Below the pieces are notes generated by a model. It was not told the origin of the DNA. It searched no databases and saw only the letters and a program-made list of their open reading frames with translations. From NCBI GenBank assembly GCA_903860745.1, contig CAIORQ010000081.1, forward strand, positions 1-62,686: 62,686 nucleotides of DNA. Direction: 5' to 3'. The position numbers were made by a program, and so were the translations under genes. Shown piece after piece: positions 19,995-37,972 of this stretch (positions within the stretch are counted from its first letter, which is position 1; every line of letters starts with the position of its first letter). The stretch comes from an uncultured Actinomycetes bacterium (GTDB lineage: Bacteria; Actinomycetota; Acidimicrobiia; Acidimicrobiales; RAAP-2).

Positions 19995-21269
19995 TCAGGT
20001 CTGAAGTTTCACGAGACGCGCGAAGCACGCACTCCACTGCGCGGCCCAGGGCCAATGTGTTGGCAGGTGCAAGTGACGTCGCCTCGCATGGTTCGTGAGA
20101 CGACCGGGCACCGTGATGAACTTGCGTCGGATGGTCTTCGCGACGAGTGGTCCGGTGACACCGAGTCCGAGCGCTGCGACCCATCGCACGAGGTTGTGCG
20201 CGATGCTCGCGAGCACCGCCCACGCGGCGTTGGCGTTGAAGTCGCCCGAGGGACAGTGCTCGAGACCGGATCCTTCCTTCAAGTCCCGGATGGCGAGTTC
20301 GACGACGGCGTGACGACGGTGGTCGACGTCGAGCAAGACGGCGTCACCGACGCGGTCGGTGACGAAGGCGTGGTAGCGGTAGTCGGGGAAGAGCGCCGGA
20401 CGGGGCTCGTTGAGTTTCGTTCGGCGAACGATCAGACGCTGCCCTTGGTAGTCGGTCTCAGCGACCCAGGCCTCGCCGTTGGCGGTGTAGTCGATTGACG
20501 TCCAATCCTCCTCGTCGATCTGTTCGATCGCCCGTGTGATCACTGGGGTCTGGCGCACGGTGATCGAGTAGCGCACGTCGTGGTCCCGGCAAGCCATCAC
20601 CACGTACTTGGAGAAGAACCCCGAGTCGGCCCGTAGCGTCAAAGTGCCACTCGCGCCGGCTCGTCGCACCCGGCCCACGGTCTCTCGCACGAACCGCTGG
20701 GCACCGCGCTGGGTGTTGGCCGAGCCTTTTCGAAAACGAAGGTGCAGCACCTCACCGGTGTCGGCGCGCGTCGCCAGCACCGGGTGATAACCGAGCACGT
20801 GGGTGTAGCCGTAGCCCGCACCGTGCTTGTGGGCGCCGTGGACCTCGCAGATCGTGGAGTCGATGTCGATGGTCATCGGCGTCTCGCCCGGGCCGGCCCC
20901 GAGGGCCCAGGCGCGAGTGAGCAACTGCTCGGTGACCGAGTCGAGCTGGCGCACGTTTCCGAAGGTGAACTCGCGCAGGAACGTGCCCAGTGTCGAGGGC
21001 GCCATCACCCGGTGGCTCAACACCGCCGCGGTCGATCCCGAGCGCAGCACGTCGGCGTCGTCGATGCAGGTCCCACCGACGACGAGTGAGTGCACCAGCG
21101 TCGCGGCCCGTCGTCCCGGGAACGGCCCAACGGAGATCCTCTCGTCGCAGAGCTGCTCGAGACCGAGCTTCTCGCTGAGCAGACCGGCCAACGCGAGGCC
21201 CGCGTTGGCGACCGCGTGGTCGTCGTCGAACATCACCGACAGGTCCGAGAAAGTGTGCGAGGATTGCAT
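19995..21269 (-). mobile_element. IS1380-family transposase
   Basis: 424-residue DDE transposase from ATG 21269 (GAAGGA upstream). Segments DIDSTICEVHGAHKHG, LTLRADSGFFSK and VELAIRDLKEGSGLEH carry the presumed D, D and E; the downstream NANAAWAVLASIAHNL fits IS1380-family enzymes. The frame is open upstream to 21317. It appears full length with no frameshift, so may be active. An imperfect inverted repeat (21270-21282 / 21332-21345) frames its promoter and RBS. I could not define terminal inverted repeats or target duplications, hence the element boundaries are open. Confidence 0.88.
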
Positions 21270-21345
21270 CGAAAAGGTGTCCTTCTTTTCAGGTTGATTT
21301 GGTGTGTGGTAACACAAATTCTACCTGATGGGGACACCTTTTTCG
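21270..21345 (-). repeat. Inverted repeat enclosing the transposase promoter and covering its RBS
   Basis: CGAAAAGGTGTCC at 21270-21282 is the reverse complement, with one extra T, of GGACACCTTTTTCG at 21332-21345. The inner arm includes the transposase SD. A TAGAAT box (minus strand, 21323-21318) lies between the arms, so the element's own transcript should start inside the loop and lack the outer arm. Confidence 0.55.
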
Positions 21346-24018: not shown

Positions 24019-24522
24019 ATGATGACCGCTGGAGCCCACCTGCGCGGAGCTCGGGTCGCCGCGTCGCTGGTGATCGTGCTCGCGGTGTCCCTGCTCTCGC
24101 CCGCGGCACGGGGCGGCGCCGCTCCCGCGGTGCGTATCGACACCGTTGTGACGACCACCCTGCGCGTGTACGAGTTCACGACCTGGTTCAACCCGCCAGC
24201 CGTCGACATCTCGTGCGAGATCGACCACGGACTGGCCCAGGCGGGGGCGGCGACGATTGCGCAGACGATCAACCAGGCCTACTGCATGTCCTCCTCGCGT
24301 TCACTGACCCACCACGTCACCGTGTCGGCGACCGGCGTCGTCAGGCGCTGCGTCGGCGTGATGTGCGGATCGAACGCCGGTTTGGGGACGCCCAGTTTCT
24401 ACCCGGGGACCGAGGTTCGCTCGGGACCCTTCACCTGCGTGATCTCGACCCACGCGGTGACCTGTCGCGAGCACGGGGCCCGGGGCTTCGTCATCACCGC
24501 CAGGGCGATCACGTCGATCTGA
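24019..24522 (+). CDS. Secreted protein of unknown function
   Basis: 167 residues. Residues 1-34 form a signal peptide with basic start, hydrophobic core (VAASLVIVLAVSLLS) and an Ala-rich cleavage region. The mature part holds six or more Cys (CEID, YCMS, RCVGVMCG, FTCVI, TCREHG), suggesting disulfide bonds outside the cytoplasm. No recognised family. Probable leaderless transcript. It precedes the ArsR gene by 87 bp. Confidence 0.6.
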   Translation: MMTAGAHLRGARVAASLVIVLAVSLLSPAARGGAAPAVRIDTVVTTTLRVYEFTTWFNPPAVDISCEIDHGLAQAGAATIAQTINQAYCMSSSRSLTHHVTVSATGVVRRCVGVMCGSNAGLGTPSFYPGTEVRSGPFTCVISTHAVTCREHGARGFVITARAITSI

Positions 24523-24573
24523 AGTCGGTGGACCGTGGGGTCCTCGGGGAATCGGGAGAATCGGGTTTAGTGA

Positions 24574-24603
24574 TTGAGTAATTTCTAAATCCATCGATAG
24601 CAT
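24574..24603 (+). promoter_or_regulatory. Promoter of the arsR-Ehr operon
   Basis: TTGAGT (24574-24579), 18-bp spacer, TAGCAT (24598-24603). The predicted start site falls on or next to ATG 24610, so the regulator is probably translated from a leaderless mRNA. The spacer contains ATTT-CT-AAAT, a small palindrome that could be an operator half. Confidence 0.5.
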
Positions 24604-24609
24604 GGGGTG

Positions 24610-24954
24610 ATGGACGAGCCGCGCGTGGAGCAGCCTCTCTACGTGGCCAAGGCCCAGTTGTTCCGTTCCTTGAGCCACCCGGTGCGCATCCGGGTCCTGG
24701 AGCTCCTGGTGGAGGGCGAGAGACCCGTCAGCGAGTTGCGCGACGCAGTGGGAGTCGAGGCGTCGTCGCTCTCCCAGCACCTCAACGTCCTCAAGCATTC
24801 GGGACTCGTCGCATCGCGGCGACGCGCCAACGTGGTGACCTACCGGATCACCGACCATAGTGTCGCGGAGTTCTTGGCGACGGCGCGACGGGTGATGGCC
24901 GCCACGATGGGGCACACCCGCTCGACGCTCGAACATCTCGAGTCCCAGCAATGA
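24610..24954 (+). CDS. ArsR-family winged-helix regulator
   Basis: 114 residues. Winged HTH visible: LFRSLSHPVRIRVLELL, recognition helix region VEASSLSQHLNVLKHSGLV, wing ASRRRANVVTYRI. It has no cysteine at all, so a thiol-based arsenic/cadmium site is excluded; the C-terminal helix holds several His/Asp/Glu residues but not at the SmtB alpha5 spacing. Its stop overlaps the next ATG by 4 bp (ATGA), tying the regulator to the hydrogenase-like operon that it most likely autoregulates. An in-frame GTG at 24607 is the alternative start. Confidence 0.88.
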   Translation: MDEPRVEQPLYVAKAQLFRSLSHPVRIRVLELLVEGERPVSELRDAVGVEASSLSQHLNVLKHSGLVASRRRANVVTYRITDHSVAEFLATARRVMAATMGHTRSTLEHLESQQ

Positions 24955-25448
24955 GCGATCCCGCTACTCCGCGACGATCATGGGCGTGGCGGGGACTGTG
25001 GCATCGGCCGCTCTCCGAGCGCGTCACGCAACGGCCGCCCCAGGTCACCGGGGTCTCTCTGCGGGGTTCGCTGCAACTGCGTCACGTCGATGCCGGTTCG
25101 TGCAACGGCTGTGAGGTGGAGATCGCCTCGGCCATGGCGCCGCACTACGACGTCGCCCAGTACGGCATCCGCCTGGTGGCCTCACCCCGACACGCCGACG
25201 GGCTCCTGGTCACGGGCGTGGTGACCCAGAACATGGAGGGCCCCCTGCGCCAGACCCTGGCCGCGGTACCGCGTCCCTCGGTGGTGGTGGCCTGCGGTGA
25301 CTGCGCCATCAACGGCGGCATCTTCCGCGACGCCTACGCGGTCGTCGGATCGGTGGGGGAGTTGGTCGAGACTCAGGTCGAGATCCCCGGCTGCCCACCG
25401 CACCCGCGCGACATCGTCGCCGCCTTGCGAAGCCTGAGCGGTCGCTAG
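24951..25448 (+). CDS. Small iron-sulfur subunit of an Ehr / group 4 hydrogenase-like complex (NuoB/HycG type)
   Basis: 165 residues. Cytoplasmic-face subunit that carries the proximal [4Fe-4S] cluster in complex I and group 4 hydrogenases. Ligand cysteines are present: C51 and C54 (GSCNGCEVEI), C118 (GDCAINGGIF) and C148 (PGCPPHP); C115 is an extra Cys. A membrane-proximal N-terminal 35-residue extension is rich in Arg and Trp. Overlaps arsR by ATGA; the next gene starts 2 bp after its stop. The intact cluster site shows that the complex still handles electrons although its large subunit has lost NiFe ligands. Confidence 0.88.
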   Translation: MSDPATPRRSWAWRGLWHRPLSERVTQRPPQVTGVSLRGSLQLRHVDAGSCNGCEVEIASAMAPHYDVAQYGIRLVASPRHADGLLVTGVVTQNMEGPLRQTLAAVPRPSVVVACGDCAINGGIFRDAYAVVGSVGELVETQVEIPGCPPHPRDIVAALRSLSGR

Positions 25449-25450
25449 CG

Positions 25451-27451
25451 ATGACCTGGTACCTGGTCGCGCTGAGTCTGGGCGCCCTGGCGGCGATCGC
25501 CGGGGCGACGCTGCCGCGACGCGTGCGCGTGCCCGTGGCCGCCGCCCTGGGAGCCCTGGGGTGTGCCGTCTCCCTCGTCGCTGCGGTCGGCGACCTCATC
25601 GACGGCCGGACCATCCTGGTGCACAGTGACCGTCTCCTACCCTTCTCGGGGGTGTCGCTGACCCTCGACCCCTTGGCGGCCCTCTTCGTGGTGCTGAGTT
25701 CGCTGGTCGGCGTAGCCGCGTGCCTCTACCTTGTCGGCTACGCGCACGGACCTAGCGCCTCGCGCAGCGCCGTGTCGATCTTCATGGTCTTCGTCCTCGC
25801 GCTCAGCGTCGTGCCGCTCGCGTCGAACATCGTGAGTTTCATGTTCGCCTGGGAGCTCATGGCCCTCAGTTCGCTGCTGCTCATCGTCACCGACCAGGCC
25901 CAGCGCCCCAAGGCCCGCTCGGCGGCCCTGTGGTACGCCGCGATGACCCAAGCGGGAGCCGTGTCGATCACGCTGGGTCTCTTGCTCTGCGCCTCCCGCG
26001 CGCCGGGCCAGAGCTTCGTCGACATCGCCGCGTCGTCGTCGACGCTGTCGGCGACGACGCGCACGGCGGCCTTCGTGCTCGTCCTGCTGGGCTTCGCGTC
26101 CAAGGCCGGTGCCGTGCCGCTGCACGTGTGGTTGCCCAAGGCCCACCCCGAGGCGCCGAGTCCCGTGTCGGCGCTGATGTCCTCGGCCATGGTCTCGATG
26201 GGGGTCTACGGGATCGTGCGGGTGGGTGGTGACCTGCTGCACGGCGGGACCGTGGGCTGGTGGGTCGCGGTGGCGGCACTCGGGATCGTCTCGGCGGTCT
26301 ACGGCGCCCTGCACGCCACGACCGCCAGTGACTTCAAGCGACTGCTGGCGTTTTCGACGATCGACATCATGGGACTGTCGCTGATCGGCGTGGGGGCGGC
26401 GGGAGTGCTCGAGGACAGCGGCATGCACGCGGACGCGACCCTCGCCATGATGGCCGCACTCTTGTTGTTGGTCGCGCACGCCGCCTTCAAAGGTGCGCTG
26501 TTCCTCGGCGCCGGCAGCGTCGAGCGCGCGACCGGGACGCGCAACCTCGACCGCCTGGGCGGATTGGTGCACACCATGCCGACCACCTCCGTGGTGGTCG
26601 CGCTCTCGGCCGGCGCGATCATGGCGGTGCCCACCCTGAGCGGTTTCTCCAGTGAGTGGCTGCTGCTGCAGGGCCTGTTGCACGGCTTCACGGACACCTC
26701 GACCCCCGTGGTCATCGTGATGTTGTTGGGGGTGGTCGCGTTGGCCCTGACGGGCGGGCTCACGGCGGTCGCCTTCGTCAAGGCCTTCGGCATCGGCTTC
26801 CTCGGCCAACCCCGCAGTGCGGGCGCCCGCGACTCGCGCGAAGTCTCGCGGTGGATGGGCTGGGGATCGGCGTTGCTGGTGCTGCCCAGCCTCGTGCTGG
26901 GCCTCGTCCCGGGCCTCGTGGTCAGCCTCATCAACCGGGCGGCGGACACGGGACTCGGAGGGGTCGCGACGACCCCCGTCTCGACGGGCGCGGGACTGGC
27001 CCTGTCGCAGTTGCGTGGCGCGATCGAACCGGCGGCGCTGTTGGGCGCGCTGGTGGGCGTGATGGTCGTGCTCGCGCTGGCGGCGCGGACCCTTGGTCAG
27101 CGCCGCGCGCGCCGGGTGGACGCCTGGGGTTGCGGTCGGGAGGAACAGACGCCGCGGATGCAGTACACCGCGACGTCCTTCGCCGAGCCGCTCCAACGGG
27201 TCTTCGCCGACGTCTTGCGACCTCAGATGGACGTGGAGGTGACCCACGCGGTCGAGTCACGCTACTTCCAGCAGTCCCTCACGTATCACCACCGCATCGC
27301 CGACGTCGTGGAGGTCCGGGCGTATCGTCCCGTCTTCGGCGTCGTCCACCGAGTGGGGGTTCTCGCGAGACGCCTGCAGAACGGGAGCATCCACCGCTAC
27401 CTGGCCTTCGGCTTCGTGGCCCTCCTGGTCGTCGTGGTGGTGCTGGCGTGA
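25451..27451 (+). CDS. HyfB/HycC-like (NuoL-type) proton-translocating membrane subunit
   Basis: 666 residues with about 15-16 membrane helices. Key ion-path residues are present: Glu in FAWELMAL (TM5), Lys in GFASKAGAVPLHVWLPKAHP (TM7 and following), Lys in AHAAFKGALFL. The C-terminal region GCGREEQTPRMQYTATSF matches the tail seen in HyfB/HycC subunits rather than true NuoL, and lacks the long NuoL lateral helix. It should conduct H+ or Na+. Next gene overlaps by 4 bp (GTGA). Confidence 0.9.
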   Translation: MTWYLVALSLGALAAIAGATLPRRVRVPVAAALGALGCAVSLVAAVGDLIDGRTILVHSDRLLPFSGVSLTLDPLAALFVVLSSLVGVAACLYLVGYAHGPSASRSAVSIFMVFVLALSVVPLASNIVSFMFAWELMALSSLLLIVTDQAQRPKARSAALWYAAMTQAGAVSITLGLLLCASRAPGQSFVDIAASSSTLSATTRTAAFVLVLLGFASKAGAVPLHVWLPKAHPEAPSPVSALMSSAMVSMGVYGIVRVGGDLLHGGTVGWWVAVAALGIVSAVYGALHATTASDFKRLLAFSTIDIMGLSLIGVGAAGVLEDSGMHADATLAMMAALLLLVAHAAFKGALFLGAGSVERATGTRNLDRLGGLVHTMPTTSVVVALSAGAIMAVPTLSGFSSEWLLLQGLLHGFTDTSTPVVIVMLLGVVALALTGGLTAVAFVKAFGIGFLGQPRSAGARDSREVSRWMGWGSALLVLPSLVLGLVPGLVVSLINRAADTGLGGVATTPVSTGAGLALSQLRGAIEPAALLGALVGVMVVLALAARTLGQRRARRVDAWGCGREEQTPRMQYTATSFAEPLQRVFADVLRPQMDVEVTHAVESRYFQQSLTYHHRIADVVEVRAYRPVFGVVHRVGVLARRLQNGSIHRYLAFGFVALLVVVVVLA

Positions 27452-28401
27452 ACCGCGTCGCGCTCTCGGTGTGCACCTCGGTGTTGCAGTTGGCCCTGGT
27501 CGGAGTGGGCAGTCTGGTGCTCCTGGGCCTCATGGCGAAGGTGAAGGCCCGCGCCGAGGGCCGCGTGGGATCGCCCGTGGTCCAGCCCCTGCGCGATATC
27601 CGCAAGCTCTTGACCAAGGAGCGCCTGCACGCGCGCCATTCGAGCGTCGTGCTGGCACTGGCGCCGATGGTGATCACGGCGTCGGCGGCGGTGGCCGTGG
27701 GGATCTCGCCGATCATCGGCACGCATCCGGTCCTCGGCCAGAGTGCGGACATCTTCGTGATCGTCTACCTGCTGCTCACCGGCTCCGTCGCGTCCGCCCT
27801 GGCCGGGCTGGACCCCGCCACGGCCTTCGGCGGTATGGGCGCGAGTCGCGCCATGACCATCGGGGCGCTGGCCGAGCCGGCCCTGTTGGTGGCGGTCATC
27901 GCCCTGTCGGTCCAGGCCGGCACCTCGAACCTGCCGGGCATCGTGTCGAGCACCGCGAGTCACCCCGCCTGGGTCTTCGGACCGGTCCACCTCTTCGCCC
28001 TGGGCGCGTTGCTCATCGTGGTGCTCGCCGAGACCGGTCGAATCCCGGTGGACAACCCCGCTACGCACCTCGAGCTGACGATGGTGCACGAAGCCATGGT
28101 GCTGGAGTACGCCGGTCCGGAGCTCGCCCTGGTGACGCTGGGCGAGGCGATGCGCCTCGGACTGCTTTTCTCGCTCGTGGCGAACCTCTTCCTCCCCTGG
28201 GGCGTGGCCACCGGCGATTCGCTGGGTGCCCTGGCCATCGCCTGCGCGGCCCTGGTGGCGAAGACGACGACGCTGGCCCTGGTGGTCGCTCTCATCGAGG
28301 TGCGCAGCGCCAAGCTGCGGCTGTTCCGTCTGCCCGAGCTCCTGGCCGGTGGTTTCGTCCTGTCGGTGCTCGCGGTCGTCATGGGACTGGTGATCAGGTG
28401 A
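27448..28401 (+). CDS. NuoH/HycD-like membrane subunit
   Basis: 317 residues from GTG 27448, which overlaps the previous stop. About eight helices. Segment MAKVKARAEGRVGSPVVQP is the conserved cytoplasmic loop of NuoH/HycD (family form KARxxxRxGP), followed by RDIRKLLTKE. AETGRIPVDNPATHLELTM carries the acidic residues of the junction between the peripheral and membrane arms. It couples redox events to ion pumping. The next gene overlaps by 4 bp (GTGA). Confidence 0.9.
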   Translation: MNRVALSVCTSVLQLALVGVGSLVLLGLMAKVKARAEGRVGSPVVQPLRDIRKLLTKERLHARHSSVVLALAPMVITASAAVAVGISPIIGTHPVLGQSADIFVIVYLLLTGSVASALAGLDPATAFGGMGASRAMTIGALAEPALLVAVIALSVQAGTSNLPGIVSSTASHPAWVFGPVHLFALGALLIVVLAETGRIPVDNPATHLELTMVHEAMVLEYAGPELALVTLGEAMRLGLLFSLVANLFLPWGVATGDSLGALAIACAALVAKTTTLALVVALIEVRSAKLRLFRLPELLAGGFVLSVLAVVMGLVIR

Positions 28402-29054
28402 ACACGGCTTACGTGTCCGCCCTCGACGTCACGGCGGGCCTGGTCCTGTTCGCGGCGGTGATGACCCTCTGGCGTCGCGGGGTGCGCACCATCGTGTCGA
28501 TCCTGGGGGTGCAGGGACTGTCCCTGTCGGCCGTCGCCCTGGTGCTCGCGATTCACGAGCACGACACGGCACTGCTGGTGACCGGAGGTCTCGTCCTGGT
28601 GCTCAAGGGGATCGTCATCCCCGGCCTGCTACTGCGCGCGAGTCGGCTGGACCCGAAGTCCCGGGAGACCCGCCCCCTCGTCAACGTGCCGGCTTCACTG
28701 GTCGCGGCCGCGGTCTTGATCGTCCTGTCCTACGTCGTCAGTGCGCGGATCACCTCGCTGGCGCCCAGCGACGCCACCCGGTTGGTGCCGCTGGGGATGG
28801 CGACAATCCTCGTGGGCTACTTCATGCTCGTCACGCGCCGACGCGCGGTGTCCAAGATCGTGGGCCTGATCCTCGTCGACAATGGCATCGGACTGGTCGC
28901 GTACCTGCTGACCTCGGGAGTGCCCTTTATCGTCGAGCTGGGTTCCTCGATCGACGTCCTGCTCGTGGTCGTGGTCCTGCAGTTCTTGATGGTCTCCATG
29001 GGGCGCCATTCCGACGTGGACGTGCTCACCGAGCGACGGGAGCTGCGCGACTGA
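28398..29054 (+). CDS. HyfE-like membrane subunit (NuoK-related)
   Basis: 218 residues, six or so hydrophobic segments. The C-terminal half (RRAVSKIVGLILVDNGIGL) shows the NuoK/MrpC-like element, with a Glu in the following segment (FIVELGSSIDVLL). The length and internal layout correspond to HyfE of hydrogenase-4-type complexes. GTG 28398 overlaps the preceding stop by GTGA; its own TGA shares one base with the next ATG (TGATG). Confidence 0.85.
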   Translation: MNTAYVSALDVTAGLVLFAAVMTLWRRGVRTIVSILGVQGLSLSAVALVLAIHEHDTALLVTGGLVLVLKGIVIPGLLLRASRLDPKSRETRPLVNVPASLVAAAVLIVLSYVVSARITSLAPSDATRLVPLGMATILVGYFMLVTRRRAVSKIVGLILVDNGIGLVAYLLTSGVPFIVELGSSIDVLLVVVVLQFLMVSMGRHSDVDVLTERRELRD

Positions 29055-30511
29055 TGCTCCTCGTGATGATCGTGGCGATTCCCCTGGCGATGACCCTGGC
29101 GGCGATGGTGTGCCCGTGGAGCCCGTGGCTCGGTCGCGCCTCGGGGCTGGCCAGCGCGGGCGTGCTCGCGCTGGGGATCTGGCTGAGCGCCCTGACCATG
29201 ACGACCCCCCGATGGGGTGCGGCGCACCTGATGCGCGCCGACTCGCTCAGTGCCTTCATGGTCGTGGTCATCGGCTCGGTCTCGGTCCTGGCCACGTCCT
29301 TCACCTCGCGCACCATGAGCCAGGAGATCGCCTCGGGCGCCACCACGGCGCGCCACGCGCGCCACTACGTGATCTTGATGCAGGTCTTCATCACCTGCAT
29401 GCTGATCGCGGTGCTGAGCGCGAACCTGGGCGTGGTGTGGATCTCCATCGAAGCGACCACCATCGCCACCACCTTCCTGGTCAGTCACCGGCGCACCAGC
29501 GGTGCCTTCGAGGCGTCGTGGAAGTACGTGATCCTGTGCTCGGTGGGCATCGCCCTGGCCTTCTTGGGGACGGTCCTGATCTACTACGGCGAGCTGCACG
29601 CGAGCGGTGGCCACGTCGCCTCGCTGAACTGGACCTCGCTGATGGCCGCGGCCCCGCACCTGGACCCCAGGGTCACCCGCCTGGGCTTCGCGCTGCTCGT
29701 CGTCGGCTACGGGACGAAGGTCGGTCTCGTGCCGATGCACTCCTGGTTGCCCGACGCCCACTCCCAAGCCCCGGCGCCGGTCTCGGCCCTCATGTCGGGA
29801 GTCCTGCTGAGCGTCGCCTTCTACGCCCTCCTGCGATTCCGCGCCGTGGTGCAGATCGCGCTGGGCCCGACCTTCCCGCGCGTGGCACTCCTGATGGTCG
29901 GCGTCGCCTCCCTGCTCGTCGCCACGGCCATGCTCATCGCCCAGCGCGACCTCAAGCGGATGTTGGCGTACTCGAGCATCGAGCACATGGGTCTGATGGC
30001 CGTCGGGGCGGCCGTCGGATCGCCGCTGGCGATCGCGGCGGTGCTGCTGCACGTCCTCGGCCACGGCATCACGAAGGCCGTGCTCTTCCTGTCCGCGGGC
30101 GAGATCTACCAGTTGGAGGGAACCACCGAGATCGACCGGATCTCGGGGCTCCTGGCGCGCCGGCCGGTCCTGGGAGGGATCTTCGGCTTCGCGCTGATGT
30201 CGCTGGTGGCGTTCCCGCCCTTCAGTCTCTTCGTCAGCGAGCTCTCCATGGCCCGGGCCGAGGTCGACGCCGGCCTGAGCTGGGTGGTGGCGGTCTCACT
30301 GGCCTGTCTCGCCGTGGTCTTCGCCGCGGTGTTGCGCCACGGACGCCATCTGCTGATGGGGTCGCGCGGTGACGGCGAGTCACCCAGCGTCCTCGACCGG
30401 TCGGCCGCCTCGATGTTGGTCGGTGCCCTCGTCGTGTGCGTGGCGCTGGGCGTGCTGTCGTGGCCCGTGCAGTCGCTCCTGTGGCACGCCGCCCACCAGG
30501 TGACGCCGTGA
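29054..30511 (+). CDS. HyfF-like (NuoM/N-type) proton-translocating membrane subunit
   Basis: 485 residues, about 14 helices. Conserved ion-path residues: Glu in WISIEATTI, Lys in GYGTKVGLVPMHSWLPDAH, Lys in GHGITKAVLFL. The PxxxLPDAHSQAPAPVSALMSG stretch is typical of the antiporter-like subunits of complex I relatives; the whole protein matches HyfF best. With the HyfB-like subunit it gives the complex two antiporter modules. Overlaps the large-subunit gene by GTGA. Confidence 0.88.
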   Translation: MLLVMIVAIPLAMTLAAMVCPWSPWLGRASGLASAGVLALGIWLSALTMTTPRWGAAHLMRADSLSAFMVVVIGSVSVLATSFTSRTMSQEIASGATTARHARHYVILMQVFITCMLIAVLSANLGVVWISIEATTIATTFLVSHRRTSGAFEASWKYVILCSVGIALAFLGTVLIYYGELHASGGHVASLNWTSLMAAAPHLDPRVTRLGFALLVVGYGTKVGLVPMHSWLPDAHSQAPAPVSALMSGVLLSVAFYALLRFRAVVQIALGPTFPRVALLMVGVASLLVATAMLIAQRDLKRMLAYSSIEHMGLMAVGAAVGSPLAIAAVLLHVLGHGITKAVLFLSAGEIYQLEGTTEIDRISGLLARRPVLGGIFGFALMSLVAFPPFSLFVSELSMARAEVDAGLSWVVAVSLACLAVVFAAVLRHGRHLLMGSRGDGESPSVLDRSAASMLVGALVVCVALGVLSWPVQSLLWHAAHQVTP

Positions 30512-31983
30512 ATCCGCACCCGCAGACCCGTCACGTCGTCGCGCACGAGTTGCACGACCTGGCGGCGTCGCAGCTCGCGCTCGGACACCGTCTCGCCCTG
30601 GTGTCGGCCCACGAGGACCACCGTGGTCTGCGCGTCGTCTACCTCTTCACCGGTGGCCCGCCCGACGAGCGCCACGAGTTCGAGCTGCACCTCGACCGTG
30701 CCCACCCCGCGGTGCCCACCCTGGCCGACCTGTCCTTCGCCGCGAGTCGCTTCGAGAGGGCCCTGCACGACGACTACGCCATCGTGCCGGTCGGCCATCC
30801 CTTCCTAAGGCCCCTGGTGCGCCACCAGCACTGGCCCGAGGACTGGTACCCGATGCGTCCGGGCGCCGGGCCCATGCCCCCGCGGCGGGTGCTGGGCGAT
30901 CCCTACCCCTTCACCGAGGTCAAGGGGACGGGCGTGTACGAGATCCCGGTCGGGCCGGTGCACGCCGGCCTGATCGAACCGGGACACTTCCGCTTCTCGG
31001 TGGTCGGTGAGACCATCCTCAAGATGACCGCTCGCCTCTGGTTCGTGCATCGTGGGGTGGAACGTCTCTTCGTCGGCCTCGACGCCGACGAGGGCGTCGC
31101 CATCGCCCAGCGGATCTCCGGCGACAGCGCCGTGGCCCACTCACTGGCCTACTGCCTGGCCGTCGAAGACGCGCGAGGCATCGAGGCGGACGAGGAGTCG
31201 CGGCGCCTGCGCGCGATCGTGCTCGAGCTCGAGCGGCTCTACAACCACGTCGGTGACGTCGGGGCGTTGTGCAACGACGTCAGTTACGCCGTGGCGAACG
31301 CGCGCGCGATGGTCGTGCGCGAACGCATCCTTCGCTTGAACGAGGGCGTCACCGGTCACCGGCTGGGGCGCGGCGCCGTCTTCGTCGGTCGCACGTCACT
31401 GAGGGTCCTGCCGACCGGGCGCGAGCTCGACGAGGTCGCCGAGGCCTTCGAGGACGTCGTCGACCTGGCCCTGGGCAATTCGGTGGTCGTGGACCGCTTC
31501 GTGGGGACCGCCACCCTGTCGAGGAACGACGCCCTGGCCATCGGCACGCTGGGCGTGGTGGCGCGCGCGTCCGGGGTGGCCCAGGACGCGCGCGTCGCCC
31601 ATCCCTTCGTGGCGGGAGGGTTCACCCCCGTGGTCCAAGAGGGCGGCGACGTGATGGCCCGCTTCGTCCAGCGCGTCGAGGAGTTCCGCGCATCGCTCGA
31701 CATCGTGCGCCGCCTCAGCGGCGAGGTCCGCTCCCTGTCGGGCGGGTCGCTGCGTCGGCGCGATCCCAGCGCCGCGGGCGTGGGGATCGTCGAGGGGTGG
31801 CGCGGGGCGGTCGTGCACCGCGTCGAACTCGACGCCCAGGGTCGGGTCGCGCGAGCGCGGACCCTCGACCCGTCCTTCTTCAACTGGCCGGCCCTGTCGA
31901 TCGCGTTGAGTGACACCATCGTCCCGGACTTCCCCTTGTCGAACAAGAGCTTCAACCTGTCCTACGCCGGCAACGACCTCTAG
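30508..31983 (+). CDS. Large subunit of an Ehr complex: NuoC-NuoD/HycE-like protein without NiFe ligands
   Basis: 491 residues: N-terminal NuoC-like domain (1-~120) and a NuoD/HycE-like catalytic-subunit domain. Group 4 NiFe hydrogenases carry RxCGxC near the middle and CxxC near the end. Here the first motif reads R202-ISGDSAVAH (31111-31140), with Ser and Asp instead of Cys, and the C-terminus (SDTIVPDFPLSNKSFN...) has no Cys. Only two cysteines exist (LAYCLAV, ALCNDV). Surrounding family features are preserved (VHRGVERLF, LELERLYNHVGDVG, GRGAVFVGR). So it cannot bind a NiFe centre. GTG 30508 overlaps the preceding stop. Last gene of the operon. Confidence 0.88.
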   Translation: MNPHPQTRHVVAHELHDLAASQLALGHRLALVSAHEDHRGLRVVYLFTGGPPDERHEFELHLDRAHPAVPTLADLSFAASRFERALHDDYAIVPVGHPFLRPLVRHQHWPEDWYPMRPGAGPMPPRRVLGDPYPFTEVKGTGVYEIPVGPVHAGLIEPGHFRFSVVGETILKMTARLWFVHRGVERLFVGLDADEGVAIAQRISGDSAVAHSLAYCLAVEDARGIEADEESRRLRAIVLELERLYNHVGDVGALCNDVSYAVANARAMVVRERILRLNEGVTGHRLGRGAVFVGRTSLRVLPTGRELDEVAEAFEDVVDLALGNSVVVDRFVGTATLSRNDALAIGTLGVVARASGVAQDARVAHPFVAGGFTPVVQEGGDVMARFVQRVEEFRASLDIVRRLSGEVRSLSGGSLRRRDPSAAGVGIVEGWRGAVVHRVELDAQGRVARARTLDPSFFNWPALSIALSDTIVPDFPLSNKSFNLSYAGNDL

Positions 31984-32018: not shown

Positions 32019-32366
32019 ATGTTCGCCGTCACCGACCAGCGCTTCGAGGAGCTGTGCGCCGAGGCTCTCGACTCGCTGCCCGAGGAACTGTCGCGCCAGA
32101 TGCAGAACGTCGTGGTGATGGTCGAGGACCAGGCGGTGGGGCGAGCGCTGCTGGGGCTCTACGAAGGCGTTCCGCTGACCAAGCGCGGCCCCCTGACCTA
32201 CAGCGGCGTCCTGCCGGACCGGATCACGATCTACCAGTCGGCGATCTGTCGCTCGTGCCACTCCGAGGACGAGGTCCGTGCGCAGGTACGCAAGACCGTC
32301 ATCCACGAGGTGGCGCACCACTTCGGCATCTCCGACCCGCGCCTCGAGGAGCTGGGCTGGTCGTGA
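32019..32366 (+). CDS. Minimal zincin-like metallopeptidase family protein
   Basis: 115 residues. Contains HEVAHHFGISD near the C-terminus, the HExxH...D zinc motif of the small Zincin_1 family (PF06262-like). The segment before, YQSAICRSCHSEDEVRAQVRKTVI, is also typical. Activity has not been established for this family to my knowledge. Starts 35 bp after the Ehr operon with its own TANNNT box. Followed by a strong hairpin that separates it from a converging SDR gene. Confidence 0.88.
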   Translation: MFAVTDQRFEELCAEALDSLPEELSRQMQNVVVMVEDQAVGRALLGLYEGVPLTKRGPLTYSGVLPDRITIYQSAICRSCHSEDEVRAQVRKTVIHEVAHHFGISDPRLEELGWS

Positions 32367-33333: not shown

Positions 33334-33801
33334 ATGACCCTCTCGGCGCGCGCGGTGGACGGCGGCTTTCGCCTGCTGAACGGTCTGCATCGCGCGCTGT
33401 GGCGCCTGAGCGGCGGTCGCGTCGGGTCGCGAGCCTACGGGCTCGACATGGTCGAGCTCACGACGATCGGACGACGCAGCGGACGGGCTCACTCGACGAT
33501 GCTGCTGGTCCCCCTGCGCGACGGCGAACGACTGGTCGTGGTGGCGTCCAAGGGCGGCGACGTCCGCGATCCCGACTGGTTCAAGAACGTGGTGGCCGAT
33601 CCCCGGGTCTACCTCAGGGAGCGGGGGCGCGTGCGAGCGATGGAGGCGCGCGTGGCCTCGCCGGTCGAGCGCGAGCGGCTCTGGGTGCGCGCAGTGGATC
33701 GCTACCCGCACTACGAGCGCTACCAACGGCGCGCGGGTCGCGAGATCCCCGTCGTCGTGTTGGCGCCGACGGCTCCGGCGTCGTCGCGCCACCGCGTCTG
33801 A
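33334..33801 (+). CDS. Deazaflavin (F420)-dependent nitroreductase family protein
   Basis: 155 residues of the Ddn/FDOR-A type split beta-barrel family. Diagnostic segments are TTIGRRSGRAHSTMLL (phosphate-binding Arg/Ser region for F420) and VVASKGGDVRDPDWFKNVVADP, which matches the family SKGG-x4-P-x-W motif. Such proteins use F420H2 and imply that the organism makes F420. Substrate unknown. ATG 33334 lies 6 nt from a TANNNT box. Confidence 0.85.
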   Translation: MTLSARAVDGGFRLLNGLHRALWRLSGGRVGSRAYGLDMVELTTIGRRSGRAHSTMLLVPLRDGERLVVVASKGGDVRDPDWFKNVVADPRVYLRERGRVRAMEARVASPVERERLWVRAVDRYPHYERYQRRAGREIPVVVLAPTAPASSRHRV

Positions 33802-34378: not shown

Positions 34379-35707
34379 TCACGCCTCCGCGGCGACGATC
34401 CTCCAGGGGTGTTCGATGAAGGCCGTGAGGGTGCGTAGGAACTGTGCGGCCAAGGCACCGTCGATGATCCGGTGGTCGGCCGAGAGCGTCATGCGCATGC
34501 GGTGCCGGGGCACGATCTGATCGCCGACGATCACTGCTTCGCGGGTCGTGGCCCCGACGGCGAGGATGGCGCCCTCGGGCGGGTTGATGATCGCGGTGAA
34601 CTCCTCGACACCGTACATGCCGAGGTTGGAGACGGTGAAGGTTCCGCCGCTCATCTGCTCGATGCTCAGTCCCTTGCCGTTGGCCTGGGCGGCCAAGGAC
34701 TTGGTCTCGGCACCGATCTCGTACACCGACTTCAGGTCGGCGTCGACGATCACGGGGACCACCAAGCCGTGCTGGGAGGCCACGGCCACGCCGACGTTGA
34801 CCCGGTTGTGCAGCTGCATGACCTTGGAGTCGTCGCCGAGGTAGGAGGCGTTGACCTCCGGGTGCTCGCGCAGGGCCAGGGCGACGGCGCGCACGATGAG
34901 GTCGTTCACGCTGACCTTGGCCAGGTCCTTGTCCACGGCCTGCTCGTTGAGGTCCGCGCGCATCTGCGTCAAGACTTCGGCGTCCGCCACCGAGGTCACG
35001 TAGAAGTGAGGGATGGTCTGGGCACTCTCTGAGAGGCGGCGCGCGATCACGCGACGAGCCTTGGTGACCGGCACTTCCTGGGAAGCGCGACGTGCGTCGA
35101 CGATCGGTCCGGTCGCGACCACGGGACGGGCCACGTGGCGAGGTGCCGGGGTCGCGGGCCCCGCCGGCGCGCCCACGAGGGAGTCGAGGTCGGCACGGAT
35201 GATGCGCCCTCCGGGGCCGCTGCCGCGGATACCCGACAAGTCGAGCCCGTGTTCACGGGCCAGGCGACGCACCAGGGGCGAGGCGAATTGGCCGTCCGCA
35301 CCCCGGTTCTCCGGGACGGCACGGCTCACGGTGCGCGACGAGCTCGCGGCGACCGCCGGAGCCGGCGAAGGAGCGGGCGAAGGAGCGGGCGATACCGACG
35401 CGGCGGGCTCGGGAGCGGGAGTTGCCTCGACCGGCGCCGGCGCGGGCGCGGGCGCCGGGGCGGGGGAGTCCTTTCCGTTGTCGAGCATCGCGATCGGCGT
35501 GCCGATGGCCACGGTGTCGCCCTCGGCCACCAAGATCTCGCTCAGGGTGCCGGCCTCGTAGGCCTCGTAGTCCATCGTCGCCTTGTCGGTCTCGATCTCC
35601 ACCAGCACGTCACCGACCTCGACTCGCTCACCCGGCTTCTTGTGCCACGCGGCGACCGCGCCCTCTTCCATCGTGTCGGACAGGCGAGGCATCTTGATTT
35701 CAATCAT
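34379..35707 (-). CDS. pdhC: 2-oxoacid dehydrogenase E2 (dihydrolipoamide acyltransferase)
   Basis: 442 residues from ATG 35707. Domains: one lipoyl domain with the lipoylated Lys42 in EIETDKATM; a long Pro/Ala linker (about 78-125); an E3/E1-binding domain (ASPLVRRLAREHGLDL...GPGGRIIRADL, about 137-175); the catalytic core ending in HRIIDGALAAQFL with catalytic His and Asp. It transfers the acyl group to CoA. Its start lies 8 bp inside the end of the E1beta gene. The likely substrate is pyruvate, judged from E1. A dihydrolipoamide dehydrogenase gene is not adjacent. Confidence 0.92.
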   Translation of the reverse strand: MIEIKMPRLSDTMEEGAVAAWHKKPGERVEVGDVLVEIETDKATMDYEAYEAGTLSEILVAEGDTVAIGTPIAMLDNGKDSPAPAPAPAPAPVEATPAPEPAASVSPAPSPAPSPAPAVAASSSRTVSRAVPENRGADGQFASPLVRRLAREHGLDLSGIRGSGPGGRIIRADLDSLVGAPAGPATPAPRHVARPVVATGPIVDARRASQEVPVTKARRVIARRLSESAQTIPHFYVTSVADAEVLTQMRADLNEQAVDKDLAKVSVNDLIVRAVALALREHPEVNASYLGDDSKVMQLHNRVNVGVAVASQHGLVVPVIVDADLKSVYEIGAETKSLAAQANGKGLSIEQMSGGTFTVSNLGMYGVEEFTAIINPPEGAILAVGATTREAVIVGDQIVPRHRMRMTLSADHRIIDGALAAQFLRTLTAFIEHPWRIVAAEA

Positions 35708-36719
35708 GGCTTTGACCAACCTTCTTGAGTCGCCGACCGACGGCCTCGAGTGTCTGGAATATAGCGTTCACCACGTCGTCGTTGGTCGGCATGGCGGCCG
35801 ATTCCAGGTTCTTGGAGTAGGGCATCGGCACTTCGGCCATCGCCACGCGCCGCACCGGTGCGTCCAGGTAGTCGAAGGCTCCGTCGGAGATCGTCGCGGC
35901 GATCTCGGCACCGATTCCGTAGGTCAGCCAGTCGTCCTCGAGGACCACGGCGGCGTGGGTCTTCTTGACCGACTCCACCAGGGTGGCGCGGTCGAGCGGA
36001 CGCAAGCTCATCAGGTCGATCACCTCGATGTCGAGCCCCTCGGACTCCGCCAGGGACTCGGCGATGTTGCGCGCCACGTAGGCCATGCGCGAGTAGCCGA
36101 TCAGGGTCAGGTCGTGTCCCTCACGGGTGATCTTGGCCTTGCCGATCTCGGCGGGGGTGTCGTCATCGGGCACGTCGCCCTTGGTGTTGTAGAGCGCCAG
36201 GTTCTCCAAGAACAGCACGGGGTCGTCGTCGCGGATGGCGGCCAGGAGCAGGGCCTTGGCGTCGGCCGGAGTGGAGGGGGCGACGACCTTCATTCCCGGG
36301 ACGAAGGCGTAGTAGAGCTCGATGTTCTGCGAGTGCGTGGCACCCAGCTGTTGTCCGCCACCACCGGGGGTGCGGATCACCAGGGGCACCTTGGCCTGGC
36401 CGCCGAACATGCCGTAGATCTTGGCCGCGTGGTTGACGATCTGGTCCAGGGCGAGCAGGGAGAAGTTGATGGTCATGATCTCGACCACGGGGCGCAGGCC
36501 CAGCATGGCCGCGCCGATGGCGGCCCCGGTGAAGCCCTCCTCGGCGATCGGGGTGTCGCGGACGCGCTTGTCCCCGAACTCCGTCAGGAGTCCCGCGGTG
36601 ATCTTGTAGGAGCCCTCGAAGACGCCGATCTCCTCACCCATCAAGAACACGTTCTCGTCTCGCAGCATCTCCTCGCGCAGGGTGTCGTGCAGTGCTTGGC
36701 GATAGGTCTTGATGGTCAT
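35700..36719 (-). CDS. pdhB: Pyruvate (2-oxoacid) dehydrogenase E1 component, beta subunit
   Basis: 339 residues, transketolase-like fold. Starts MTIKTYRQALHDTLREEMLRD; includes GEEIGVFEGSYKIT, EEGFTGAAIGAAMLGLRPVVE with the TPP-activating Glu, and the C-terminal DAPVRRVAMAEVPMPYSKNLE. With the alpha subunit it decarboxylates the 2-oxoacid and acylates the E2 lipoyl group. Overlaps E1alpha by 4 bp and E2 by 8 bp, so a tightly coupled operon alpha-beta-E2. Confidence 0.93.
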   Translation of the reverse strand: MTIKTYRQALHDTLREEMLRDENVFLMGEEIGVFEGSYKITAGLLTEFGDKRVRDTPIAEEGFTGAAIGAAMLGLRPVVEIMTINFSLLALDQIVNHAAKIYGMFGGQAKVPLVIRTPGGGGQQLGATHSQNIELYYAFVPGMKVVAPSTPADAKALLLAAIRDDDPVLFLENLALYNTKGDVPDDDTPAEIGKAKITREGHDLTLIGYSRMAYVARNIAESLAESEGLDIEVIDLMSLRPLDRATLVESVKKTHAAVVLEDDWLTYGIGAEIAATISDGAFDYLDAPVRRVAMAEVPMPYSKNLESAAMPTNDDVVNAIFQTLEAVGRRLKKVGQSHD

Positions 36720-37972
36720 CGCGCCACCTCCACGTTGTAGCGGGCGACGACGGGAAAGAGCGGGTCACCCGGCCGGCGTCGTGAGTCGTTGGCGACCGGC
36801 GTCGCGTAGTTGTAGTCGAAGAGGGTCGACACGTCGGGAACCGCGCTGGCCCGGGCGAAGGCGTCGGCGGCGTCGGCACGGGCCGTCTCCTCCTCGTCGA
36901 TGTGGCGCAGCTCGGCAGCGGTGAGGATCTTCTCCTTCACCAGACGGTTGGCCAGTGCCGGGACCGGGTCGAGCCTGGCGACCAGGGCGACCTCCTCGGG
37001 CGAGCGGTACTTCGCCGGGTCCACCACCGAGTGCCCACGAAGTCGCTCACAGACGACTTCGAGGAGGAAGGGCTTGCCGGCGCGCGCGGATTCGATGGCT
37101 CGCGAAGCGGCGTCGGCGACCAGCACCGGGTCGAGCCCGTCCACGCGCTCCGACGCCATGGCGTAGGCGGAGGCGCGCTTGTAGATCTCGGGTTCGGCGG
37201 ACGCCTTGGCGACCGTGGTGCCCATACCCAGGCCGTTGTTGATCACCACGAAGACGACCGGGAGGCTCCAGAGGGCCGCGATGTTGAGCGATTCGTGGAA
37301 GGCGCCGATGTTGGCGGTGCCGTCACCCATCGTGCACATGACGATCTCGTCGAGGCCGCGGTAGTTGATGGCCAGGGCCGCGCCCGTGGCGAGGGGGAGC
37401 TGTCCACCCACGATGCCGTAGCCGCCGAGGAGTCGATGCGTCATGTCGAACATGTGCATGGAACCGCCCCAGCCCTTCGACACCCCGTCGACGCGGCCGT
37501 AGAGCTCGGCCATCGCGTGGTTCGGGTGGATGCCGCGCATCAGGGCGTAGCCGTGCTCGCGGTAGTTGGTGAACAGGTAGTCGGTCTCGCGCAGCGCCGA
37601 CATCAAGCCGACGACGGTGGCCTCCTCGCCGAGGTTCAAGTGGCAGTAGCCCCCGATCAGGGCCTCGGTGTAGGCACGCGCGGAGCGCTCCTCGAAGCGG
37701 CGGATCAGCATCATGTCGCGGTAGAACTGGACGAGTCGGGCGCTGTCGGCCTTCTTGGTCGCCGTTCGGCGAGCGGCGGCCTTGGTCGCGCCGGCCTTGA
37801 CCGGGGCCGACGACGTCGCCACCGCCTTCTTGGCGGGTGACTTCTTGGCCACCGCCTTCTTGGCCACCGCTTTCTTGGCCACGGCTTTCTTGGCCACGGC
37901 CTTGGTCGACGAAGGGGCGACCGCCGCCTTGTCGGGTGTCGGCTTCGCGGTTCTCAACGAGTCAACAGTCAT
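36716..37972 (-). CDS. pdhA: Pyruvate dehydrogenase E1 component, alpha subunit, with a Lys/Ala-repeat N-terminal tail
   Basis: 418 residues. The enzyme part starts near residue 78 (LVQFYRDMMLIRRFEE) and shows the PDH-type signatures GGYCHLNLGEEA, KGWGGSMHMFD, and the TPP motif MGDGTANIGAFHESLN...VINN. Residues ~24-75 are an unusual disordered tail built of KAVAK/KKSPAKK-type repeats, similar in composition to histone H1 or actinobacterial HU tails and not part of normal E1alpha. ATG 37972 has GAAGGA 6 bp upstream. The divergent aquaporin gene begins 198 bp away. Confidence 0.93.
   Translation of the reverse strand: MTVDSLRTAKPTPDKAAVAPSSTKAVAKKAVAKKAVAKKAVAKKSPAKKAVATSSAPVKAGATKAAARRTATKKADSARLVQFYRDMMLIRRFEERSARAYTEALIGGYCHLNLGEEATVVGLMSALRETDYLFTNYREHGYALMRGIHPNHAMAELYGRVDGVSKGWGGSMHMFDMTHRLLGGYGIVGGQLPLATGAALAINYRGLDEIVMCTMGDGTANIGAFHESLNIAALWSLPVVFVVINNGLGMGTTVAKASAEPEIYKRASAYAMASERVDGLDPVLVADAASRAIESARAGKPFLLEVVCERLRGHSVVDPAKYRSPEEVALVARLDPVPALANRLVKEKILTAAELRHIDEEETARADAADAFARASAVPDVSTLFDYNYATPVANDSRRRPGDPLFPVVARYNVEVAR
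37841..37900 (-). repeat. Four tandem 15-bp repeats coding for KKAVA units in E1alpha
   Basis: Unit (plus strand) CTTCTTGGCCACCGC, four copies with 0-3 differences, giving KKAVA each; a degenerate fifth (KKSPA) flanks at 37826-37840. In-frame expansion or loss of units would leave the enzyme frame intact. Confidence 0.8.

What the first reader, a model, noticed from the sequence alone, without database searches (positions are those of the whole stretch)
24951..31983. Complete Ehr-type complex: group 4 hydrogenase architecture without NiFe ligands
Six overlapping genes encode a NuoB-like Fe-S subunit, two antiporter-like subunits, NuoH-, HyfE- and NuoCD-like subunits. The large subunit has RISGDSAVAH (31111-31140) where hydrogenases have RxCGxC, and no CxxC at the C-terminus, while the Fe-S subunit keeps its four cluster cysteines. 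Ion-path Glu and Lys residues in the membrane subunits are intact. This is an electron-to-ion-gradient machine with an unknown substrate site, matching the Ehr class described as lying between complex I and group 4 hydrogenases. Function of Ehr is not established.
Basis: partly seen in the sequence, partly recalled or inferred. Interest (0 to 1): 0.82.

Follow-up and report, generated by a model that had tools for sequence, protein, structure and literature searches.

The report
Hydrogenase-like ion pump without its metal
This bacterium carries a complete relative of hydrogen enzymes and of respiratory complex I whose nickel-iron site is missing as a stable family trait; it belongs to the known but functionally unexplained 'Ehr' class, and some relatives have lost even the last electron-carrying cluster, which suggests that the machine may not need electrons at all.

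Summary
Window 24951-31983 encodes a six-subunit complex I/formate-hydrogenlyase-like complex, preceded in the same run by an ArsR gene (24607-24954). All four [NiFe] cysteines of the large subunit are replaced (HycE C241, C244, C531, C534 become S204, S207, S485, G488). This is a family signature: R[IV]SGD[ST] and NKSFNLSY[AS]GNDL recur from Actinobacteria to Nitrospira and candidate-phyla bacteria, under purifying selection (dN/dS 0.11-0.22 in four pairs of relatives). No HypD and no molybdenum formate dehydrogenase were found in the genome, so hydrogenase or formate hydrogenlyase is very unlikely. Filing as Ehr is supported; the same gene order is annotated 'formate hydrogenlyase' in mycobacteria.

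The new part concerns mechanism. The window keeps one [4Fe-4S] site but has no electron-input subunit in the operon. In a fully supported clade nested among its relatives, 8 of 8 loci keep the pocket signature but have T/D, C, D, D at the four cluster positions; 6 further genomes show similar losses. Those complexes cannot be ordinary oxidoreductases. I favour an ion-translocating complex driven from a converted, proton-wired pocket, redox-coupled in this genome (0.5); a non-redox pocket is the main rival (0.33).

The parts
24607..24954 (+). ArsR/SmtB-type regulator (115 aa, GTG start, no cysteine); overlaps the next gene by 4 bases
   Evidence: PF12840/PF01022, NF033788; relatives lie in the stretch held, upstream or downstream of the operon, in 29 of 41 actinobacterial loci, 9 of 10 class B loci and three Rokubacteria loci
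24951..25448 (+). small Fe-S subunit (HycG/NuoB-like, 165 aa)
   Evidence: PF01058 E 3.8e-29; best PDB match HycG 7z0s_G E 1.2e-30
25101..25112 (+). cluster motif C51-N-G-C54, hydrogenase-type spacing (ligands 1 and 2)
25302..25304 (+). cluster ligand C118
25392..25394 (+). cluster ligand C148 (PGCPPHP)
25451..27451 (+). antiporter-like subunit, HyfB/NuoL-like (666 aa)
   Evidence: NF005086 hydrogenase 4 subunit B, 520.8 bits (below its cut-off of 667); ion-path residues
27448..28401 (+). NuoH/HycD-like membrane subunit (317 aa)
   Evidence: PF00146 E 3.8e-36
28398..29054 (+). HyfE-like membrane subunit (218 aa)
   Evidence: NF008556 E 7.9e-17, below its cut-off; no Pfam match
29054..30511 (+). 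antiporter-like subunit, HyfF/NuoN-like (485 aa)
   Evidence: NF005044 354.6 bits, below its cut-off of 610
30508..31983 (+). large subunit, HycE/NuoCD-like (491 aa, GTG start)
   Evidence: PF00346, PF00329, PF00374; 7z0s_E E 4.8e-53, Z 45.0
30976..30978 (+). E157, equivalent of HycE E193 on the beta1-beta2 loop
31111..31140 (+). RISGDSAVAH: S204 and S207 in place of HycE C241 and C244
31942..31980 (+). NKSFNLSYAGNDL: S485 and G488 in place of HycE C531 and C534; last residue aligns with HycE residue 537

Best explanation
This is an Ehr-type complex: the membrane arm (two antiporter-like subunits, NuoH-like and HyfE-like) and the peripheral pair (HycG-like, HycE-like) of a formate-hydrogenlyase-type complex whose [NiFe] site has been turned into a metal-free polar pocket (S204-G-D206-S207, N479-K480-S481, N483, S485, G488). 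Shown by sequence: subunit set, loss of all four NiFe ligands, conservation of the replacement residues, conserved proton-path and antiporter residues, intact ligands for one [4Fe-4S] cluster, no HypD and no molybdenum formate dehydrogenase found in the genome. Inferred: a diffusible partner exchanges electrons with the single cluster; a small proton-accepting substrate is turned over in the pocket (E157, R432, H247, E392, R353 supply protons as in HycE); the event is relayed through the NuoH-like subunit to the antiporter-like subunits, which move H+ or Na+. It does not make or use H2 and is not formate hydrogenlyase. The ArsR gene probably regulates it.
For: Replacements conserved: in 95 class A rows (clade A0 counted apart) S204 is Ser in 90, D206 Asp in 92; K480 is Lys in 94 of 94 and S485 Ser in 93 of 93 rows with a letter there. 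HypD: no match in the own genome, 96.6% complete, nor in 33 of 33 genomes of the genus searched (73-97% complete). PF01568 finds one place only, on contig C30 near nuoD, taken as NuoG. Proton-path residues named for HycE in PMC9474812 (passages) map to R432 (Arg in 94 of 94), H247 (95 of 95), E392 (95 of 95), R353 (95 of 95) and E157 (Glu in 84 of 95). Cluster ligands CCCC in 70 of 75 class A rows. Antiporter pattern EKHHKHKE in 122 of 149 HyfB-like and 117 of 160 HyfF-like rows, all classes and the E. coli references included, not made non-redundant. dN/dS 0.192, 0.128, 0.220 (genus pairs) and 0.110 (Cryobacterium pair) for the large subunit. Tree.
Against: No ferredoxin-like or NuoI/HycF-like subunit lies in the operon of the window or its actinobacterial relatives (the same pattern finds HycB, HycF, HyfA, HyfH and NuoI in E. 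coli), so how electrons reach the cluster is unexplained. Complex I's quinone-headgroup His and Tyr are I156 and G205 here. The canopy Asp of HycE (D529) is Asn. E157 is Gly in 9 of 95 class A rows. Most important, a nested clade keeps the pocket but has no cluster ligands, and four Microbacteriaceae loci have lost one or three of the four cysteines: the cluster is dispensable in parts of the family. No activity data exist for this genome.
Confidence: 0.5

Rival explanations
1. Non-redox machine. The pocket does acid-base or ligand-binding chemistry coupled to ion movement (either direction), like the membrane-potential-driven CO2-hydrating DAB2 complex that also uses a NuoL-like subunit; where the cluster survives, as here, it is structural or a redox sensor.
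For: Clade A0: in the 8 loci where the small subunit could be read, 8 of 8 have T/D, C, D, D at the four ligand positions and 48 of 48 subunits have no CxxC or CC in the matched stretch. The pocket is kept: 12 of 12 A0 large subunits have S204, G205, D206, K480, S485 (in 4 of these 12 the small subunit was not seen). The clade has support 100/100 and lies inside the family. HyfB-like pattern unchanged in 8 of 8; HyfF-like with E396 in 5 of 8, Lys in 3. Six further genomes in a sample of 285 show TCDD, SEGD, TEGD, TEDD or DADN (only their small subunits were read, plus one large subunit, L192, with the pocket motif). No electron-input subunit in the window's clade. DAB2: PMC13144422 (passages).
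Against: The window's own branch keeps the four cysteines in 70 of 75 class A rows; a merely structural cluster is rarely so conserved. A0 hosts may have repurposed the complex; R353 is Lys in 7 of 12 A0 rows. Absence of COX1 in small A0 hosts is weak, since Nitrospira moscoviensis, which respires, also gave no match.
Confidence: 0.33
2. Quinone reductase-like complex: a soluble donor reduces the cluster, which reduces menaquinone in the pocket, as in complex I.
For: Same fold as the quinone subunit of complex I, Z 41.3 with the mycobacterial enzyme; proton path shared.
Against: Headgroup His and Tyr absent (I156, G205); tandem CC of the complex I small subunit absent, CxxC instead; the pocket residues are polar.
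Confidence: 0.08
3. Fe-S-catalysed reduction of sulfane sulfur, as in archaeal MBS.
For: MBS is a solved relative with a partly emptied NiFe site (PMC7684303, passages).
Against: MBS works through a cluster with three cysteines because its motif is three residues shorter, and keeps two of the four large-subunit Cys; the window has hydrogenase-type spacing with four ligands and none of the large-subunit Cys.
Confidence: 0.03
4. Active [NiFe] hydrogenase or formate hydrogenlyase, as the mycobacterial relatives are annotated.
For: Overall similarity to HycE/HycG only.
Against: No NiFe ligands, no HypD found, no Mo-formate dehydrogenase found, no HycB/HycF in the operon.
Confidence: 0.005
5. Decaying remnant or plain Mrp-like antiporter without an active pocket.
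For: Metal site lost.
Against: Pocket and proton-path residues are near invariant against a mean column identity of 51%; dN/dS 0.110-0.220; the six genes stay together across phyla wherever the contig is long enough.
Confidence: 0.05

Closest known systems
Ehr (energy-converting hydrogenase related) complexes of Nitrospira, Saganbacteria, Geobacter
   Same: Group-4-like large subunit without NiFe ligands, antiporter-like, HyfE-like, large and small subunits; function unknown (PMC6349859, PMC10284858, PMC8691401, passages). Nitrospira and Saganbacteria loci fall in the same clade.
   Different: Gene order here is ArsR-small-HyfB-H-E-F-large; in the Nitrospira-type loci the small subunit comes last and no ArsR match is seen. 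The published sequences themselves were not compared.
Mycobacterial hyc locus (Rv0081-Rv0087), annotated formate hydrogenlyase
   Same: Same order: ArsR-type regulator, two 'oxidoreductases', hycD, hycP, hycQ, hycE (passages). M. persicum L082 has the window's gene order and both pocket motifs.
   Different: The M. tuberculosis proteins themselves were not compared here; that they share the ligand loss is inference from M. persicum and other Mycobacteriaceae loci.
E. coli formate hydrogenlyase / hydrogenase 3 and 4 (HycE, HyfG)
   Same: Fold (Z 45.0), small-subunit cluster spacing, proton-path residues, HyfB/HyfE/HyfF-like subunits.
   Different: No NiFe ligands, no HycB/HycF in the operon, no HypD or Mo-formate dehydrogenase found; protein ends where HycE residue 537 aligns.
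Respiratory complex I (NuoB, CD, H, L, N)
   Same: Fold and membrane-arm residues.
   Different: No NADH module in the operon, no tandem Cys, no quinone His/Tyr.
MBS, archaeal sulfane sulfur reductase
   Same: NiFe site dismantled (PMC7684303, passages).
   Different: MBS keeps two of four large-subunit Cys and has a three-Cys cluster; the window has none and a four-Cys cluster.

Membership tests
[quoted passage not shown]
   S204, S207, S485, G488 for C241, C244, C531, C534 of HycE
Ehr complex | antiporter-like membrane subunits plus HyfE-like, large and small subunits | tested here: met
Ehr complex | groups with published Ehr large subunits | tested here: inconclusive
   Groups with Nitrospira and Saganbacteria loci, lineages in which Ehr was described, but the published sequences and Geobacter Ehr were not themselves in the tree
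Ehr complex | redox-coupled charge translocation | not testable with these tools
   No activity data; suspected, not shown, in the paper seen
Group 4 [NiFe] hydrogenase / formate hydrogenlyase | RxCGxC and C-terminal CxxC ligands | tested here: not met
Group 4 [NiFe] hydrogenase / formate hydrogenlyase | HypD maturation protein in the genome | tested here: not met
   0 matches in own genome, 96.6% complete; 4 of 14 control genomes ring; 0 of 33 genomes of the genus
Group 4 [NiFe] hydrogenase / formate hydrogenlyase | HycB/HycF-like electron-transfer subunits and molybdenum formate dehydrogenase | tested here: not met
   no ferredoxin pattern in the operon (control); PF01568 only at one place, taken as NuoG
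Complex I | quinone-headgroup His and Tyr of the 49 kDa subunit | tested here: not met
   I156 and G205
Complex I | tandem cysteines (CC) in the small subunit | tested here: not met
   CNGC instead
MBS | shortened motif leaving three Cys on the proximal cluster; two residual large-subunit Cys | tested here: not met
   hydrogenase-type spacing, no residual Cys; MBS features from passages of PMC7684303; no MBS sequence was aligned

The most novel reading that the evidence does not exclude
Ehr is not an oxidoreductase family. It is a complex I-like machine whose dismantled NiFe site has become a non-redox, proton-wired catalytic or ligand pocket coupled to ion movement; the [4Fe-4S] cluster is a dispensable leftover, retained here and lost outright in a clade of candidate-phyla and Thermoleophilia-type bacteria, where the complex has no visible redox cofactor site and in 3 of 8 loci sits near F1 ATP synthase genes.
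Probability: 0.33. Interest if true: 0.92.

Novelty: new member of a known kind. Interest (0 to 1): 0.6.

Why it matters
The window itself is a new member of a known class of unknown function, but it sits in a genus in which no [NiFe] assembly gene HypD was found, and in a genome with no other [NiFe] large subunit, which makes the hydrogenase reading untenable here. It ties the Acidimicrobiaceae complex to the mycobacterial hyc locus, called formate hydrogenlyase or [NiFe] hydrogenase in the papers seen here, and says that this name should be dropped if the mycobacterial proteins share the signature. The cluster-less relatives are a natural experiment: a complex I-shaped machine with the coupling pocket and ion path but no electron carrier. 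If they pump or use an ion gradient, the coupling mechanism of the whole complex I superfamily can be studied without electron transfer.

Tried and rejected
Viral contigs: no relative. Conserved partner genes in the flanks: among 41 actinobacterial loci the recurrent clusters are the six genes, ORFs on other frames that overlap them (judged from the example ORF of each cluster), and ArsR (29 loci); each remaining cluster is in 11 loci or fewer (best 45 clusters looked at). A palindromic operator upstream of the ArsR gene: no inverted repeat found in 24480-24640. Rfam: only four tRNAs in the window. Class C proteins (L051-L057, L062, L178), two of which I first took for cofactor-free, were set apart: their small subunits carry an N-terminal single-cluster ferredoxin-like stretch in L062, L178, L051 and L056; L052, read in the same call, does not. 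Class C falls inside class A and was left out of the tree. Small-subunit fusions with a ferredoxin motif exist in two class A loci (L123, L176), so absence of an electron wire is a statement about the window's clade, not the whole family; four actinobacterial loci (L085, L095, L097, L109) have a ferredoxin-pattern ORF outside the operon genes or in another frame. Literature: 'energy-converting hydrogenase related' as one phrase gave no paper; papers holding other senses of 'hydrogenase-related' (PMC11540253, PMC9381531; passages) and a Parcubacterium paper (PMC5220378, passages) gave nothing on Ehr. That cluster-less Ehr is unreported rests on searches of an open-access library, of which mostly titles and abstract openings were seen; Marreiros et al. 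2013, which defined Ehr, is not held (seen only in a reference list) and may discuss it. My notebook's figure of 32 genus genomes without HypD is wrong; one search lists 33. One search missed one subunit of L130 and part of one of L131; one search read all 48.


Full report
WHAT IS THERE. The window is contig C81 of a 2.13 Mb, 110-contig genome, 96.6% complete. A related contig labelled Acidimicrobiaceae (DAIDJP010000013.1) has the length of a contig of a same-genus genome, so the genus is probably of that family. Seven genes run in one direction: an ArsR-type regulator (24607-24954), a HycG/NuoB-like small subunit (24951-25448), HyfB-like (25451-27451), NuoH-like (27448-28401), HyfE-like (28398-29054), HyfF-like (29054-30511) and a HycE/NuoCD-like large subunit (30508-31983). 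The next gene, a zincin-like protein (32019-32366), gives no match in the 80 named loci and is not part of the unit.

THE NiFe SITE IS GONE AS A FAMILY TRAIT. Aligned with E. coli HycE, the four ligands C241, C244, C531, C534 are S204, S207, S485, G488. The numbering check is good: residues that the formate hydrogenlyase structure paper calls E193, R478, D529, S283, H284, E437 and R395 (PMC9474812, passages) fall on E157, R432, N483, N246, H247, E392 and R353. In 95 class A rows S204 is Ser in 90, G205 Gly in 95, D206 Asp in 92, S207 Thr or Ser in 89; K480 is Lys in 94 of 94, S485 Ser in 93 of 93, G488 Gly in 93 of 93 rows with a letter there. The last residue, L491, aligns with HycE residue 537. 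I recall, from no call, that hydrogenase precursors are cut there; the window protein has no extension beyond it. Selection on the large subunit is purifying: dN/dS 0.192, 0.128 and 0.220 in three genus pairs and 0.110 in a Cryobacterium pair.

THE GENOME SHOWS NO MEANS TO BUILD OR FEED A [NiFe] HYDROGENASE. PF00374 rings only at this gene. HypD has no match in this genome and none in 33 of 33 genomes of the genus searched, 21 with the complex and 12 without, 73-97% complete. The only Molydop_binding match is on contig C30, between nuoD and a NuoI-like ORF, and is taken as NuoG. Metal-free formate dehydrogenases and [FeFe] hydrogenases were not searched. Within the genus 20 of 37 genomes have a strong match to the large subunit, two of them cut by contig ends, and one more has pieces with stops.

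FAMILY. Together with unnamed relatives the large subunits fall into: class A (window type; Actinobacteria, Nitrospira, Rokubacteria, Acidobacteria, Verrucomicrobia, Saganbacteria, Omnitrophota, Methylobacter and a thaumarchaeal bin), a nested clade A0 (candidate-phyla bacteria and Thermoleophilia-type Actinobacteria), class B (four cysteines as RACxAC and CYACxDR) and class C (degenerate motifs, inside class A). In a tree without class C and NuoD, rooted on FHL, A plus A0 is a clade (99/94 bootstrap/SH-aLRT), A0 lies inside it (node 81/87) and is itself 100/100, and B with the Bryobacterales protein L133 is the sister (99/93). [quoted passage not shown] Ech, Mbh and MBS were not included.

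CLOSEST NAMED SYSTEMS. The description of Ehr in PMC6349859 and PMC10284858 (passages) fits: related to group 4 hydrogenases, no Ni/Fe ligands, antiporter-like subunits, unknown function. The gene order ArsR-small-HyfB-H-E-F-large is that of the mycobacterial hyc locus, described as a predicted formate hydrogenlyase or putative [NiFe] hydrogenase (passages). Mycobacterium persicum (L082), Mycolicibacter kumamotonensis (L089) and other Mycobacteriaceae show both pocket motifs. The annotation cannot be right for them; for M. tuberculosis this is inference.

ELECTRON SUPPLY. The small subunit has a hydrogenase-type four-cysteine site (C51-x-x-C54, C118, C148). A ferredoxin pattern that finds HycB, HycF, HyfA, HyfH and NuoI in E. 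coli finds none in the operon of the window or of its actinobacterial relatives; L085, L095, L097 and L109 have a hit elsewhere or in another frame. Exceptions in the wider family: small subunits fused to a ferredoxin motif in L123 and L176. In 41 actinobacterial loci the only recurrent neighbour is ArsR, in 29. Of the 35 ArsR ORFs 24 have no cysteine, the window's among them, so a thiolate metal sensor is unlikely. ArsR also lies beside class B operons in 9 of 10 loci.

THE RESULT THAT CHANGES THE QUESTION. Of 75 class A small subunits 70 have all four cluster cysteines; the other five are three Cryobacterium (CCCS, CCCS, CCCN), one Microbacteriaceae bin (ACAS) and one Rokubacteria (four Cys, the first shifted). 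In clade A0 the small subunit could be read in 8 loci: 8 of 8 have Thr or Asp, Cys, Asp, Asp in a protein that is otherwise well conserved (NACEQEL, GDDA, GDPP), and 48 of 48 subunits have no CxxC or CC in the matched stretch. A sample of 285 genomes of the phylum of L120's genome gave 11 matches: 8 without the site (two of them already counted), patterns TCDD, SEGD, TEGD, TEDD, DADN; one partial; two with all four Cys that accompany a large subunit with RICGIC. Yet the large-subunit pocket is unchanged: 12 of 12 A0 rows for S204, G205, D206, K480, S485, Y486, though in 4 of these rows the small subunit was not seen, and R353 is Lys in 7. The HyfB-like ion-path pattern is unchanged in 8 of 8; in the HyfF-like subunit E396 is Lys in 3 of 8, as in E. 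coli NuoN. Seven small A0 hosts (0.5-1.1 Mb; the small subunit seen in six) have no COX1 match, but neither has Nitrospira moscoviensis, and the larger A0 hosts differ: L134's genome has three matches, G298 a weak one, G340 none. In 3 of 8 A0 loci F1 ATP synthase genes lie beside or within 5 kb of the operon (L120, L131, L137). So the pocket has a function that survives without the cluster. This argues, without proof, that electron transfer is not the essence of Ehr. A complex that uses a NuoL-like subunit and membrane potential for CO2 hydration without redox chemistry exists (DAB2, PMC13144422, passages).

VERDICT ON MECHANISM. Shown by sequence: ligand loss, new conserved pocket, conserved proton path and antiporter residues, intact single cluster site in this genome, no HypD found, no electron-input subunit in the operon. 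Inferred: ion translocation; substrate turnover in the pocket; partner. For this genome I give 0.5 to a single-cluster redox-coupled ion pump of unknown substrate, 0.33 to a non-redox pocket, the rest to quinone, sulfur, remnant and hydrogenase readings. Complex I-type quinone binding is disfavoured because the headgroup His and Tyr are I156 and G205; MBS-type catalysis because the cluster spacing is that of hydrogenases (PMC7684303 passages).

CLASS B. Ten proteins keep cysteines at the NiFe positions, nine at all four and one with Asp at the second. Nine of the ten operons have ArsR beside them, but 8 of the 10 genomes have no HypD match, one of them a single-contig, 99% complete genome (G137). 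They probably bind something other than the NiFe cofactor. This may be a state between hydrogenase and Ehr.

Noticed in passing
L120, L130, L131, L134, L136, L137, L145, L177; also L186, L187, L189-L192: Ehr-type small subunits that have lost the [4Fe-4S] ligands (T/D,C,D,D; SEGD, TEGD, TEDD, DADN); in the first eight loci the large-subunit pocket is unchanged.
   Followed up: yes
L120 1881-2309 and 15214-19420; L131 7-1867; L137 7-3114: F1 ATP synthase genes beside or within 5 kb of the cluster-less Ehr operon in 3 of 8 loci (beta, gamma and epsilon by Pfam or by clustering with those).
   Followed up: partly
L023/L063, L042-L050, L164-L172: Class B: large subunit with Cys at the NiFe positions (RACxAC, CYACxDR) in genomes of which 8 of 10 have no HypD match; same operon type with ArsR beside it in 9 of 10.
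   Followed up: partly
L062 (G020:C40): A same-genus genome carries a second, class C complex: cluster ligands of the small subunit lost (DDES) but an N-terminal single-cluster ferredoxin-like stretch present.
   Followed up: partly
window 34379-37972: 2-oxoacid (pyruvate-type) dehydrogenase E1 and E2 genes near the operon, opposite strand; E1-like ORFs also lie near the Ehr operon in Cryobacterium loci (clusters 32 and 39, 4 and 3 loci with the window).
   Followed up: no
window 33334-33801: F420H2-dependent quinone reductase family gene (PF04075) 1.3 kb downstream of the operon; not among the recurrent neighbours.
   Followed up: no
window 19995-21317: DDE transposase (PF13701) about 3.3 kb upstream of the ArsR gene.
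   Followed up: no
L078 10620-11041: Candidatus Mycobacterium methanotrophicum has partial extra matches to the large subunit after the long one, followed by a second ArsR match.
   Followed up: no
L117 small subunit: Rokubacteria small subunit with adjacent cysteines (NCC), as in complex I, instead of CxxC, inside class A.
   Followed up: no
L076 / G030:C51: Record JAGXBH010000035.1 is titled Acidobacteria but has the length of contig G030:C51, from a genome of the window's genus: probable mislabel.
   Followed up: no
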